From a virus: a DNA stretch of 37,115 bases. A program made the translations under genes and the position numbers. Shown here one piece after another: positions 3,203-22,973 of the stretch; position 1 is the stretch's first letter; the number at the start of each line of letters is the position of its first letter. The stretch covers positions 1-37,115 of the IMG/VR virus record IMGVR_UViG_3300037069_001222. One strand, 5' to 3'. The notes beneath the pieces were generated by a model, which was not told where the DNA came from, did no database searches, and was given only the letters and a program-made list of their open reading frames with translations.

Positions 3203-4504
3203 TCACACCCCCTCGAATGTTAGTGTTCTGCGGTTGAATCTGGCCCGTAGAACTCCTGTTTCGCCGCGCCGCTGTTTCGGAATGATGATTTCCGCCTCGT
3301 CTGATATGCGGCTGCTTTCCTCATCCCAGCCGCGATGCAGCATGAGAATCACATGGGCTACGTTCTCCAACTTGCCGGACTCGATAAAATCCCCGACCAT
3401 TGGCGGCTTGTTGTAGCTCTCGCGGTTCATCTTCACGAGCTGCGAGAGAAGCATGAGGCTGGCTTTTTCGTGCTTAATCATCCCGGCCAGACCCTTTGCT
3501 ACGGCCATAACCTTCGTTCTCTCATCCCGGCCCTCGGCTGCAACTTCCTGCGCGTAGTCAACGGCCACAAACCGGGTTCCAAACCGCCGCATGGACACCC
3601 TTGCAAGTCCGATGATCTTCGACAGGTGAAGCTCGCTTTGATCGTGAATCCTCAAGGGCCATGTAGCGACTTGCGCAGCGGCGTTCTGAATCCTCTCCAC
3701 ATGGTCTGCGTTCGCTCGCCACGGCTCGGAGATGACTTTGTAGGGAACGCCGGAAACAATCGACCAGAGGCGCCGTAGAATCTGCGGGCGCGTCATTTCA
3801 AGAGAGAATATGTGGGACGGTATTTCTACGACGCAGTTAGCCGCTACCGCCTGACACATCTCCGATGTTTTCCCAACGCCCGATCTGGCCCCGACCAGGG
3901 TTACTTCGCCGTCCATCATTCCCCCGGTGAACTCATCAAGTTCAGGGTTCCCATAACTTAGCCCCGGAGACCTTTCCAGCTTCCGAGCTGCATGGAAGGC
4001 GTTGAGTGCATCTACGCTGTATGCCTGGACCAGCGGCTCGTCTGTCTGGCTGTCGTCCAAGACTTCCTGCAAGCCGTCTTGAATGCCATTTATGACCGAA
4101 AGAGCTTCGTCCTGATCCCCGGCCCGCGTAATGGCTGATTCGCAAATGCCAATCAACTGCCTAAGTTGGGACTTTTCCTTGACGATCTTCACGTATGCCC
4201 CAATGGAGATACGCCGCGGCAGACCTTCGGTTAGAGAGAACAAGTAAGCCATCCCGCCAACCGCCTCAATCTCTCCAGAATCAACCAAGGCCGCAGGTAG
4301 TGTTACCAAATCCACCGTCTTTTCCAGCCTTGAAAGCTTCAGCATGGCCCCAAAGATGCGGCGGTGCGAATCAAGCGCCAGGTCTGAGGCGTGAAGCACG
4401 CTCTGCGCTTCGTCTAAAGCCTTTTCGTCTAGCAGTATGGCCCCGAGAATCGACCGCTCTGCGTCGATGTTCGCCGGCAGTCCTCTTTCAAATCCTTCGC
4501 TCAC
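3203..4504 (-). CDS. dnaB: replicative DNA helicase (DnaB-like)
   Basis: 433 aa, close to the usual 430-470. It unwinds DNA at the phage replication fork as a hexamer. The N-terminal DnaB domain (about 1-110) starts PANIDAERSILGAILLD. The RecA-like domain carries Walker A GARSGVGKT (205-213), the SLEM motif (234-237), Walker B FVAVDYAQ (312-319), SQL (354-356), and the C-terminal DFIESGKLENVAHVILMLHR and KQRRGETG (410-417). The start is GTG and overlaps the upstream TGA. It sits just after a replication-initiator-like gene, a normal pairing in phages. No intein or frameshift is visible. Confidence 0.96.
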   Translation of the reverse strand: MSEGFERGLPANIDAERSILGAILLDEKALDEAQSVLHASDLALDSHRRIFGAMLKLSRLEKTVDLVTLPAALVDSGEIEAVGGMAYLFSLTEGLPRRISIGAYVKIVKEKSQLRQLIGICESAITRAGDQDEALSVINGIQDGLQEVLDDSQTDEPLVQAYSVDALNAFHAARKLERSPGLSYGNPELDEFTGGMMDGEVTLVGARSGVGKTSEMCQAVAANCVVEIPSHIFSLEMTRPQILRRLWSIVSGVPYKVISEPWRANADHVERIQNAAAQVATWPLRIHDQSELHLSKIIGLARVSMRRFGTRFVAVDYAQEVAAEGRDERTKVMAVAKGLAGMIKHEKASLMLLSQLVKMNRESYNKPPMVGDFIESGKLENVAHVILMLHRGWDEESSRISDEAEIIIPKQRRGETGVLRARFNRRTLTFEGV

Positions 4505-12590: not shown

Positions 12591-12965
12591 ATGAGTTTTT
12601 TGAGCACGCTGGGCGCGGATGTAAAAAAGGTGTTTGACTGGCTGGGCAGCAGCAAGGGGCAGGCAGTAATTGCGGCTGGCGAAGGCGTGGTGGAATCGGT
12701 CTATCCTCCAGCTACGGGCATCATCAATCTGGCCAACACGTGGCTGTCGGAGATCATCAAGAGCGAGGGGCTGGCGGCTGGCGCTGCTGCGCAGACTGGT
12801 ACAGGCGTGCAGAAGGCGGCTATTGCGATCAACGCTGTGACTCCGCAGGCCATCGCATTTGCTGCTGCACATGGACTTCCAGCGCCCGATGCGGAGGCGA
12901 TTTCCAAGGCCAATGACGCGCTGGTCGCGTTTCTCAATGCGTTCGGCTCACCGGCAAAGGGCTGA
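12591..12965 (+). CDS. hypothetical phage protein beside the endolysin
   Basis: 124 aa preceded by AGGAGACC. The N terminus MSFLSTLGADVKKVFDWLGS is amphipathic. The rest is rich in Ala, Gly and Ile (IINLANTWLSEIIKSEGLAA; QAIAFAAAHGLPAPDAEAIS) without a clear single membrane helix. The stop shares a base with the amidase start. The position suggests a lysis or membrane role, but I recognise no holin family. Confidence 0.7.
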   Translation: MSFLSTLGADVKKVFDWLGSSKGQAVIAAGEGVVESVYPPATGIINLANTWLSEIIKSEGLAAGAAAQTGTGVQKAAIAINAVTPQAIAFAAAHGLPAPDAEAISKANDALVAFLNAFGSPAKG

Positions 12966-13450
12966 TGTTCTGGATACTCCGCTTCATCGGCGAGCGCGAC
13001 TTCATTTCACGTGGGATAGAGAGCTGGACTGACTCACTCTATTCCCACGTTGAGATGGGTAACAATCCCAACGGTTCGATAATTTCGAATAGTTGGATGG
13101 GCGCACACGCTGATGGCGGATTCCAGGATCGCGCTTTGGATTACTGCAAGCCTGAGCACGAGAAGCGGTACGCGATACCTGTGACTCAAGAGCAGCATGC
13201 GGCGATCATGGCTTATGCACATGGACTTATCGGCACGCCGTACAACTTCTGGGACATCGCGGGGCTGTTATTGCACGACCGCAAGCTTAATAGTGCGCAC
13301 GGCCTGATCTGCTCACAGAGCATGTTGGAAGTGGGCGAAGCTGGCGGCTTAAAGCTTTTGAACGTGGAAAAGGGCTTTGAGTATTTGGTTACGCCGGAAA
13401 CGCTGCATTTAAGCCCGCTGCTTATAGGGGCTTGCATCTTTTCGGCTTAA
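12965..13450 (+). CDS. permuted papain-like (NlpC/P60, YiiX-type) amidase, probable endolysin
   Basis: 161 aa. The YSHVEMG motif gives H28 and E30, and GTPYNFWDIAG (90-100) followed by GLICSQSML gives C116. This His-first, Cys-later order is the permuted NlpC/P60 arrangement of YiiX-like enzymes, which cut amide bonds in peptidoglycan peptides or lipids. No signal peptide is seen, so release would depend on a holin. Its position before the packaging genes fits a lysis role. Substrate and timing are inferred. Confidence 0.7.
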   Translation: MFWILRFIGERDFISRGIESWTDSLYSHVEMGNNPNGSIISNSWMGAHADGGFQDRALDYCKPEHEKRYAIPVTQEQHAAIMAYAHGLIGTPYNFWDIAGLLLHDRKLNSAHGLICSQSMLEVGEAGGLKLLNVEKGFEYLVTPETLHLSPLLIGACIFSA

Positions 13451-13478: not shown

Positions 13479-13631
13479 ATGGAAGAATGCGATCTCAAGT
13501 ATCTAACCGATGATGAAATGGCGACATATCAACGCCTAGCCGACAAAAGTTTGTGGGCCGAGACGATTCCGTACCAGACCATAGCCAGATTGCGCCAACG
13601 TATTGCGGAATCGTGCCCCATCGAGGCGTAG
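13479..13631 (+). CDS. small acidic hypothetical protein
   Basis: 50 aa, start chosen because AAAGGGGAAAAT precedes the ATG. It starts MEECDLKYLTDDEMATYQRL and is helical and acidic, then basic (ARLRQRIAES). It directly precedes the structured RNA and its stop touches that region. No family recognised. Confidence 0.65.
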   Translation: MEECDLKYLTDDEMATYQRLADKSLWAETIPYQTIARLRQRIAESCPIEA

Positions 13632-13890
13632 CCGTAACCAAGTTGCCGCACCTCCCGGCAACGCGCTCCGCCTGTAGCGCTCAAAACACAGGCATAAATT
13701 CAACTGGTAAGCATTCCTTACTAGTTCAAGTTTGCAGTGGCGGCGTGGATGGACACGCACTGACGTAAAGTTGGTTGGCCCAGAGTAGGCGGAATCGAAG
13801 GGCCGTAAGGCTTTACCAGACTGGAGTCTTCGGTGCGCATCGAAGACGGCCCAGATGAAGACGCCTAACCCTCTGGGAAGCCGTAACCAA
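13631..13890 (+). repeat. direct repeat GCCGTAACCAA at both ends of the RNA
   Basis: The 11-base sequence GCCGTAACCAA occurs at 13631-13641 and 13880-13890, just before the first stem and just before the last. The second copy can pair locally (GCCG with CGGC at 13892-13895), which competes with the last stem. Confidence 0.7.
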
Positions 13891-13979
13891 TCGGCCCGCT
13901 GCAATTCAAGATTCATCACAAGCTCTCCGCAACGAGAGAAGGCAGATTGGGCCGCTCTAACCGGGTGGCCCTATTTTTT
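13632..13979 (+). ncRNA. candidate structured RNA with H-type pseudoknot
   Basis: No gene fits this stretch on the plus strand, but consecutive stems cover it. GTTGCCG/CGGCAAC pair at 13642-13662. A pseudoknot forms from GCGCT/AGCGC (13663-13667, 13676-13680) and GCCTGT/ACAGGC (13670-13675, 13688-13693). AACTGGTAAG/CTTACTAGTT is a 10-pair stem with one G-U at 13702-13726. CAGT/ACTG plus GCGTG/CACGC pair at 13735-13762. GTAAAG/CTTTAC around GGCCC/GGGCC pair at 13765-13816. CTGG/CCAG around GTCTTCG/CGAAGAC pair at 13821-13854. CCAATC/GATTGG around CTCTC/GAGAG pair at 13887-13950. A terminator ends it. I do not recognise it as tmRNA, RNase P or 6S RNA. Confidence 0.55.
13949..13979 (+). terminator. 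rho-independent terminator
   Basis: GGGCCGCTC (13949-13957), loop TAACC and GGGTGGCCC (13963-13971) make a nine-pair stem with two G-U pairs, followed by TATTTTTT. It is the strongest terminator in the rightward region and marks the 3' end of the structured RNA. The next gene's ribosome site GAGGAAAA follows at once. Confidence 0.85.
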
Positions 13980-13991
13980 GAGGAAAATCAA

Positions 13992-14165
13992 ATGCTCAAT
14001 ACTCTCTCCGACACGCGCCCGCGCTGTGAATGCCACGAATGCACGCAGGCGCGCTACAGGATGTCTGCGCAAGGACATATTTACGGCGGCACTCCAATAG
14101 GGCCGGCCCTTCATCAGATGACGTCAGGACCGATCCCTGATTTGGGTATTGGCCGCGCTGTTTGA
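13992..14165 (+). CDS. small hypothetical protein
   Basis: 57 aa from the ATG at 13992, preceded by GAGGAAAATCAA. CECHECTQARY near residue 12 has three Cys and one His close together, a possible metal site. The C-terminal half is rich in Gly and Pro. No family recognised. Confidence 0.6.
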   Translation: MLNTLSDTRPRCECHECTQARYRMSAQGHIYGGTPIGPALHQMTSGPIPDLGIGRAV

Positions 14166-22897: not shown

Positions 22898-22973
22898 ATG
22901 AGCGTCGTATAGCGGCAATTATTCCGGTCTCCAAAACCGTGTGACGCAGGTTCGAGTCCTGCCGCTCATGCCA
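22898..22973 (+). tRNA. tRNA-Trp (CCA anticodon)
   Basis: 76 bases with CCA encoded. The acceptor ATGAGCG/CGCTCAT is seven perfect pairs. The T arm GCAGG-TTCGAGT-CCTGC is perfect. The anticodon loop CTCCAAA gives anticodon CCA at 22931-22933 on stem CCGGT/ACCGT (one C-U mismatch at its base). G73 and the CCGGTCTCCAAAACCG core match bacterial tRNA-Trp. The D stem is weak (GTAT with TTAT, three pairs including G-U) although the loop keeps GG. The gene is probably functional and lies alone between scaffold and capsid genes. Confidence 0.9.

What the first reader, a model, noticed from the sequence alone, without database searches (positions are those of the whole stretch)
13632..13979. Candidate novel phage structured RNA with an H-type pseudoknot and its own terminator
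A 350-base plus-strand stretch without a gene is almost fully covered by seven consecutive stems of 4 to 10 pairs. They include an H-type pseudoknot of near-ideal geometry (5-bp stem, 2-base loop, 6-bp stem, 7-base loop) at 13663-13693, and the stretch ends in a strong terminator. I do not recognise a known class. Large structured RNAs in phages (for example GOLLD and ROOL) are often found in late or tRNA-rich regions, so this could be a small member of that kind or a regulatory leader.
Basis: partly seen in the sequence, partly recalled or inferred. Interest (0 to 1): 0.78.

Follow-up and report, generated by a model that had tools for sequence, protein, structure and literature searches.

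The report
Widespread phage RNA with tRNA-like elbow
The stretch holds one copy of a large, apparently undescribed family of phage RNAs that copy the bent 'elbow' of transfer RNA but replace its anticodon arm with a variable insert; it is widespread in phages and prophages, and its job is unknown.

Summary
The plus strand folds better than every shuffle (z -3.8) and the minus strand does not. The featured H-type pseudoknot (13663-13693) is real sequence but statistically ordinary, and lies outside the conserved part. The conserved core is 13732-13904: a 9-bp closing stem P1, a 2-nt linker, a D-arm-like hairpin with loop GAUGGA, a 121-nt centre, and a T-arm-like hairpin that abuts P1. The same architecture recurs in 192 distinct elements from IMG/VR, prophages and isolated phages (Iodobacter PhiPLPE, Caulobacter DMCA, Pseudanabaena Pan3, Komagataeibacter phiKX1/2, Alcaligenes QDWS595). 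All three stems covary heavily. Without requiring pairing, P1 has at least 7 of 8 pairs in 88% of loci, against 12% when partners are shuffled. A covariance model built without the window finds the window full length (50.8 bits, E 2e-6). Rfam 15 has no match. The loops match tRNA: the T-loop equals UUCRAGY plus one purine, and the D-loop keeps A14, G18, G19 and A21. Some copies have a promoter placed to start at P1, many lie near tRNA genes, and a few enclose a whole tRNA. Best reading: a new phage ncRNA family that mimics the tRNA elbow; function untested.

The parts
13732..13740 (+). P1 5' strand TTGCAGTGG (acceptor-stem-like closing stem)
   Evidence: 9 bp with 13896-13904; covaries across the family; descriptor hit; CM hit
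13741..13742 (+). 2-nt linker CG, same place as tRNA positions 8-9
   Evidence: C in 129/129 and G in 120/129 aligned members, not required by the search
13743..13758 (+). D-arm-like hairpin: stem GCGTG/CACGC, loop GATGGA (13748-13753)
   Evidence: 17-mer in more than 119 IMG/VR contigs; stem covaries and loop is GANGGA in members found by the T-arm alone
13759..13879 (+). variable centre (121 nt here; 43-200 nt in the family)
   Evidence: centre lengths; no sequence conservation except A before the T-stem (13879)
13779..13785 (+). centre helix b CCCAGAG, pairs with b' 13871-13877 CTCTGGG
   Evidence: helix ending next to the T-arm is stronger than shuffles in three length classes, z about 4 each; also in the MFE fold
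13871..13877 (+). b' strand
   Evidence: as above
13765..13772 (+). possible pseudoknot strand a GTAAAGTT with a' 13809-13816 GGCTTTAC
   Evidence: family trend to a-b-a'-b'; in this copy 16 of 300 shuffles do as well, so suggestive only
13809..13816 (+). a' strand of the possible centre pseudoknot
13880..13895 (+). T-arm-like hairpin: stem GCCG/CGGC, loop TAACCAAT (13884-13891)
   Evidence: same loop in other members (L259); full-length CM match
13896..13904 (+). P1 3' strand CCGCTGCAA, directly after the T-arm (0-nt linker as in tRNA)
13702..13726 (+). 5' flanking hairpin, 10 bp, immediately upstream of P1
   Evidence: direct sequence; fold; some other members also have a hairpin here
13642..13662 (+). 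5' flanking hairpin, 7 bp
   Evidence: direct sequence, fold; no homologues found
13663..13693 (+).
   Evidence: present but expected by chance in about 1 of 10 shuffles; outside the conserved core
13921..13979 (+). 3' hairpin plus intrinsic terminator; probable 3' end of the transcript
   Evidence: terminator scan; the same cassette follows another gene in a related phage, L006 8374-8445

Best explanation
SHOWN: 13732-13904 is a member of a large phage RNA family. Its core is a tRNA-like frame: acceptor-like P1, 2-nt linker, D-arm-like hairpin with loop GANGGA, a variable centre in place of the anticodon arm and variable loop, and a T-arm-like hairpin with an 8-nt loop that abuts P1. INFERRED: the D- and T-type loops dock to form a tRNA elbow, because the residues that make the elbow in tRNA (A14, G18, G19 and A21; U54, U55/C, C56, R57 and A58) are the conserved ones. 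INFERRED: the RNA is a stable phage transcript of about 150-350 nt, starting at or shortly before P1 and ending at a terminator, that acts in trans. The most likely mechanism is that the elbow engages host machinery that reads tRNA elbows (RNase P, RNase Z or CCA enzyme, T-loop modification enzymes, ribosome A/P/E sites, or tRNA-targeting defence nucleases) as a handle, decoy or stabiliser, while the variable centre carries the phage-specific part. The family and the tRNA-like frame I hold at about 0.95; a trans-acting RNA at about 0.65; engagement of tRNA-elbow machinery at about 0.35.
For: Fold z -3.79 on the plus strand only. The 17-mer of the D-arm recurs in more than 119 IMG/VR contigs, and most of those independently carry the T-arm and a complementary P1. 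Non-circular covariation: with both arms anchored by sequence only, P1 has >=7/8 pairs in 88% of 119 loci against 12% (maximum 23%) with shuffled partners; anchored on the T-arm, 87 of 99 against 10.7 (maximum 19). Per-pair counts: all 18 pairs have changes on both sides, covariation score 0.82 against 0.18 shuffled (partly circular, because rows were chosen by the descriptor). Descriptor background: 2 hits in 5.2 Mb of shuffled sequence. A CM built without the window matches it full length at 50.8 bits, E 1.8e-6, its only hit. Loop invariants not demanded by the search: linker C 129/129, A before the T-stem 129/129. Own promoter in a subset: -10 hexamer exactly 12 nt upstream of P1 in 18 elements against 2.4 expected, with better-than-chance -35 boxes. 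tRNA genes within 200 nt for 18 of 192 elements against 3.5 (maximum 8) for random placement, mostly same strand. Canonical T-arms inside the centre in 7 elements against 0.08 expected, several as whole cloverleafs. No match in Rfam 15.
Against: No transcript, binding partner or phenotype is known. The T-loop is one nucleotide longer than a tRNA T-loop, the window copy has only 4 T-stem pairs, and no CCA end follows P1, so real elbow docking is not proven. Most members are not next to tRNAs. Only about a tenth have a promoter that this scan can see, and the window copy has none. Terminator enrichment downstream of P1 is modest (13 of 187 against 2-8 shuffled). The element moves between gene neighbourhoods even among related phages (L221, L236, window), so gene context gives no function.
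Confidence: 0.6

Rival explanations
1. Cis-acting processing or leader element: the tRNA-like fold sits in phage operons and recruits RNase P/RNase Z, or shields RNA ends, to punctuate or stabilise polycistronic mRNA, as tRNAs and the yjdF tRNA-like leader do.
For: The window copy lies in line between small plus-strand ORFs (13479-13631 and 13992-14165) with no visible sigma-70 promoter. tRNA-like leaders can regulate translation (PMC9142559). P1 plus T-stem is close to the 12-bp coaxial stack that RNase P measures.
Against: In a subset the promoter starts the RNA at P1, leaving no 5' leader to cleave. The window copy is followed by a strong terminator before the next gene. Flanking genes differ from copy to copy.
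Confidence: 0.2
2. Regulatory or scaffold ncRNA whose tRNA-like frame is only a folding and stability device; the variable centre acts by base pairing or protein binding specific to each phage.
For: The centre is highly variable in length and sequence while the frame is conserved; the elbow is a known stabiliser of tRNA folds (PMC4810234).
Against: The loop residues conserved are exactly those that present the elbow surface for recognition, and association with tRNA genes and nested tRNAs points to tRNA biology.
Confidence: 0.25
3. tRNA decay product or attachment-site remnant: degenerate phage or host tRNAs, or tRNA 3' ends captured at integration sites.
For: T-loop identical to tRNA T-loops apart from one inserted purine; tRNA genes nearby.
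Against: Decay cannot keep P1, D-stem and T-stem perfectly paired through wholly different sequences, nor keep invariant 2-nt and 0-nt linkers in distantly related phages.
Confidence: 0.03
4. Chance structure plus a terminator at the end of an operon.
Against: CM match E 1.8e-6 and family covariation; fold z -3.79.
Confidence: 0.01

Closest known systems
tRNA (Rfam RF00005)
   Same: Same order of helices, 2-nt linker before the D-arm, 0-nt linker after the T-arm, D-loop A-N-G-G-A core, T-loop UUCRAGY, G53-C61 closing pair in most members
   Different: No anticodon arm, 8-9 nt T-loop (one inserted purine), P1 of 6-20 bp, no CCA; the window core does not match the tRNA model
tmRNA
   Same: tRNA-like frame with the anticodon arm replaced by a long insert that can hold a pseudoknot
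   Different: No CCA, no reading frame or tag, different loops; ARAGORN reports no tmRNA in the window and Rfam gives no tmRNA match in the loci scanned
yjdF riboswitch (PMC9142559) and bacterial Y RNA (YrlA) tRNA-like modules
   Same: Use of D-loop/T-loop elbow mimicry in a non-tRNA RNA
   Different: Sequence, helix lengths and genomic setting differ; no Rfam match to either family
GOLLD and ROOL ornate RNAs (PMC12286853)
   Same: Phage or prophage RNAs of unknown function, often near tRNA genes, GOLLD linkers sometimes carrying a tRNA
   Different: Far smaller (core about 100-250 nt against about 600-800), different fold, no Rfam hit even at E<=10

Membership tests
The new tRNA-elbow phage RNA family described here | P1 - CG - D-hairpin with GANGGA loop - centre - A - T-hairpin with 8-nt loop - P1' | tested here: met
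   Window 13732-13904; independent CM hit 50.8 bits, E 1.8e-6; one T-stem pair fewer than most members
tRNA | Covariance-model match and full cloverleaf with anticodon arm | tested here: not met
   Only tRNA-Trp at 22898 found in the window
tRNA | 3' CCA or discriminator end after the acceptor stem | tested here: not met
   Sequence after P1 is TTCAAG in the window and varied elsewhere
tmRNA | tmRNA model match with tag reading frame | tested here: not met
   ARAGORN; Rfam
GOLLD / ROOL | Rfam model match | tested here: not met
   No match at gathering or at E<=10; no such match in member loci
yjdF riboswitch / YrlA | Rfam model match | tested here: not met
   No match at gathering or at E<=10
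tRNA-elbow mimic (as a way of working) | D-loop/T-loop docking in three dimensions | not testable with these tools
   Conserved loop residues are consistent; needs SHAPE or cryo-EM
Independent ncRNA | Own promoter and terminator | tested here: inconclusive
   Promoter peak in a subset; none seen for the window copy; terminator present in the window

The most novel reading that the evidence does not exclude
A previously undescribed, globally widespread class of phage noncoding RNA that mimics the tRNA elbow and swaps the anticodon arm for a variable payload (sometimes a whole tRNA), used by unrelated phages to capture or blunt host tRNA-reading machinery such as RNase P, the ribosome or tRNA-targeting defences.
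Probability: 0.35. Interest if true: 0.9.

Novelty: new variant of a known kind. Interest (0 to 1): 0.76.

Why it matters
A family with this much covariation, spread over phages of Proteobacteria, Acidobacteria, Cyanobacteria and others, yet absent from Rfam 15, is a gap in the annotation of phage genomes: every isolate copy examined lies in sequence annotated as empty. Because isolates exist (Caulobacter, Iodobacter, Komagataeibacter, Alcaligenes, Pseudanabaena phages), its transcript, partners and effect can be tested directly. If it engages tRNA-reading machinery it would add a phage strategy next to phage tRNAs, tRNA repair and the still unexplained GOLLD and ROOL RNAs.

Tried and rejected
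blastn of the region in phages and plasmids found nothing, because only short motifs are conserved. The neighbouring gene 12965-13450 has no relatives found in IMG/VR, and the terminase profile found none in genome contigs. A terminator-motif scan returned only L006 (the same contig again as L077) as a true relative of the 3' cassette, and the CTCTC..GAGAG motif scan gave nothing clearly related; that cassette is not part of the core. First-reader pseudoknot: at chance level. First CM (short centres, R1) aligned only the D-half of the window (25.8 bits, E 0.001); a model from members with centres of matching size (R2) gave the full-length hit. Centre pseudoknot: trend significant in the family but not decisive for this copy. 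Myxococcus phage Mx1 looked like a member inside a tRNA cluster, but its D-loop is GATCGA and neither CM matches it, so it is not counted. Actinobacterial hits to the 18-mer (Nocardiopsis, Streptomyces, Nonomuraea) do not pass the full descriptor and are taken as chance matches. E. coli genomes hold only short chance matches in coding genes among the hits listed. A sequence search of the literature for the 17-mer gave no paper; only open-licence papers are searchable, so a prior description in a subscription journal cannot be excluded.

Full report
OBSERVATION. The plus strand of 13632-13985 folds at -135.1 kcal/mol; 100 dinucleotide shuffles average -115.1 (sd 5.3), z -3.79, none as good. The minus strand is ordinary, z -0.70. 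The terminator at 13949-13979 is real. ORFs in the stretch have no Pfam match, and the 127-aa minus-strand ORF and the flanking small ORFs have no PHROG match. Rfam 15 gives only a distant tRNA-Trp gene in the window, and nothing meaningful at E<=10 over the region.

FINDING THE FAMILY. blastn against phages and plasmids found nothing. I collected relatives of the phage's terminase from IMG/VR and compared them with the stretch. Two short matches appeared. One is a terminator cassette in L006 after another gene. The other is GGCGGCGTGGATGGACACGC in L236 (21 of 21) and L221 (20 of 21), in different places of their genomes. A 25-mer variant occurs in 30 contigs, 10 of which were among the 119, so the first scan covered about a third and roughly 360 contigs carry the exact 17-mer (an estimate). 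Reading the contexts showed a shared frame.

ANATOMY. Outer stem P1; 2-nt linker CG; hairpin GCGUG-GAUGGA-CACGC; a centre of 43-200 nt without sequence conservation; an A; a 5-bp hairpin with loop UAUCAAGC or variants; then the 3' strand of P1 with no linker. The linker pattern is the same in 134 of 145 elements first tested. In all, 192 distinct elements were collected, against 2 descriptor hits in 5.2 Mb of shuffled sequence. In the window: P1 13732-13740/13896-13904, D-hairpin 13743-13758, T-hairpin 13880-13895 (4 bp, loop UAACCAAU, as in L259).

COVARIATION. To avoid circularity I anchored both arms by sequence only. P1 then has at least 7 of 8 pairs in 88% of 119 loci, against 12% (maximum 23% of 500 shuffles) when 3' strands are dealt out at random. 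Anchoring on an exact T-arm instead, 87 of 99 loci have P1 and 82 of those have a perfect D-stem, although D-stem sequences vary (GCGCU/AGCGC, GCACG/CGUGC, ACCGC/GCGGU and others); shuffling gives 10.7, maximum 19. On 30 diverse members all 18 pairs show changes on both sides and the score is 0.82 against 0.18 shuffled and at most 0.13 slid (these rows were chosen by the descriptor). A covariance model from 23 members with centres like the window's, built without the window, finds 13734-13902 full length at 50.8 bits, E 1.8e-6, its only hit. Membership of the window is therefore settled. Models also find relatives in L221, L236 and weakly L218, phages with terminases related to the window's.

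LIKENESS TO tRNA. The helix order, the 2-nt linker before the D-arm and the 0-nt linker after the T-arm are those of tRNA. The D-type loop is GANGGA in the members: A14, N, G18, G19, A21 in tRNA terms (established knowledge of tRNA; PMC4810234, for the 18-55 and 19-56 contacts). The T-type loop is UAUCAAGC (most) or UGUCGAGU. Remove the purine at loop position 2 and these are UUCAAGC and UUCGAGU, ordinary tRNA T-loops, closed by G-C as in tRNA. There is no anticodon arm and no CCA. Docking of the loops is inferred, not shown.

CENTRE. A helix whose 3' strand ends just before the T-arm is stronger than in shuffles in three length classes (z about 4 each), and an H-type arrangement a-b-a'-b' is favoured (z 4.0, 3.3, 2.5). 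In the window b is 13779-13785/13871-13877 and a is 13765-13772/13809-13816; alone this copy is only at 16 of 300 shuffles. Canonical tRNA T-arms lie inside the centre of 7 elements against 0.08 expected. By reading the folds, at least L541, L468 and L485 hold cloverleaf-like tRNAs with acceptor stems.

TRANSCRIPTION AND SETTING. A -10 hexamer stands exactly 12 nt upstream of P1 in 18 of 191 elements against 2.4 expected and at no other enriched position, with -35 boxes better than control (3.8 against 2.4 matches). This places the start at the first base of P1. Terminators within 130 nt downstream are somewhat enriched (13 of 187 against 2-8). The window copy has a strong terminator but no visible promoter. 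Elements avoid long ORFs (30% covered by ORFs of 130 aa or more against 72% for random placement). tRNA genes lie within 200 nt of 18 of 192 elements against 3.5 for random placement. Isolated phages with a copy are Caulobacter DMCA, Iodobacter PhiPLPE, Pseudanabaena Pan3, Komagataeibacter phiKX1/phiKX2 and Alcaligenes QDWS595. For five of the six the region was read and is annotated as empty; phiKX1 rests on the two motif matches, also in unannotated sequence. CM E-values are 1e-7 to 2e-10 for DMCA, PhiPLPE, Pan3 and phiKX2 and 0.0035 for QDWS595. Hosts of genome-contig copies include Acetobacter, Duganella, Sphingomonas, Acidobacteria, Humidesulfovibrio and a Puniceicoccales MAG; in all six loci sampled at least one gene matches a phage protein family.

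INTERPRETATION. The family and its tRNA-like frame are well supported. A free-standing RNA is likely for at least the subset with promoters. What it does is unknown. The conserved loop residues are the ones that make the elbow surface read by RNase P, the ribosome, RNase Z, modification enzymes and T-boxes (PMC4810234), so the leading mechanism is engagement of that machinery, with the centre as payload. Rivals are a cis processing or leader element (compare yjdF, PMC9142559) and a stable scaffold for a phage-specific centre. It is not a member of tRNA, tmRNA, yjdF, YrlA, GOLLD or ROOL by model, but shares phage setting and tRNA proximity with the last two (PMC12286853).

LIMITS. Literature cover is open-licence only. 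No experiment was available.

Noticed in passing
window 13921-13979; L006 8374-8445 (same contig also as L214, L077): A cassette of a CTCTC/GAGAG hairpin followed by a terminator with CGCTC..ACCGGGTG recurs after a different gene in a related phage, with a compensatory C-G to G-C change; looks like a lineage-specific terminator module independent of the RNA core.
   Followed up: partly
window 13630-13641 and 13879-13890: Exact 12-nt direct repeat AGCCGTAACCAA: the 5' half of the T-arm is duplicated 249 nt upstream, where it could compete for the same partner strand. Possible switch or duplication remnant.
   Followed up: no
L274, L285, L304, L347, L370, L384, L472, L484, L613: Subclass with a 5' hairpin (several with a GGAAAGACGG-type loop) and P1 ending ATGATGGT-like; L274, L289 and L472 continue GTGAATGCGCAGGCTGATGCGC, which resembles a tRNA D-arm. 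The RNA may be longer in these phages (about 500-800 nt without genes in L484 and L613).
   Followed up: partly
L541, L468, L485, L295, L301, L484, L578: The centre of the element contains a canonical tRNA T-arm, in several a whole degenerate tRNA cloverleaf, as also reported for GOLLD linkers.
   Followed up: partly
L433 358-1257: The prophage-like region carrying an element in an Acidobacteriales genome encodes a tRNA-His guanylyltransferase-like protein (phrog_4717), a tRNA 5'-end enzyme.
   Followed up: no
L254 1542-1615, L288 9017-9090: Rfam Burkholderiales-2 RNA lies about 0.8-0.9 kb from the element on the opposite strand in two phage contigs.
   Followed up: no
L487 about 4000-4260 (Myxococcus phage Mx1): A divergent look-alike between tRNA-Asp and tRNA-Phe with D-loop GATCGA; not matched by the models but possibly a distant relative.
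   Followed up: partly
window 22898-22973: tRNA-Trp (CCA) gene between two late-region ORFs of the phage.
   Followed up: no
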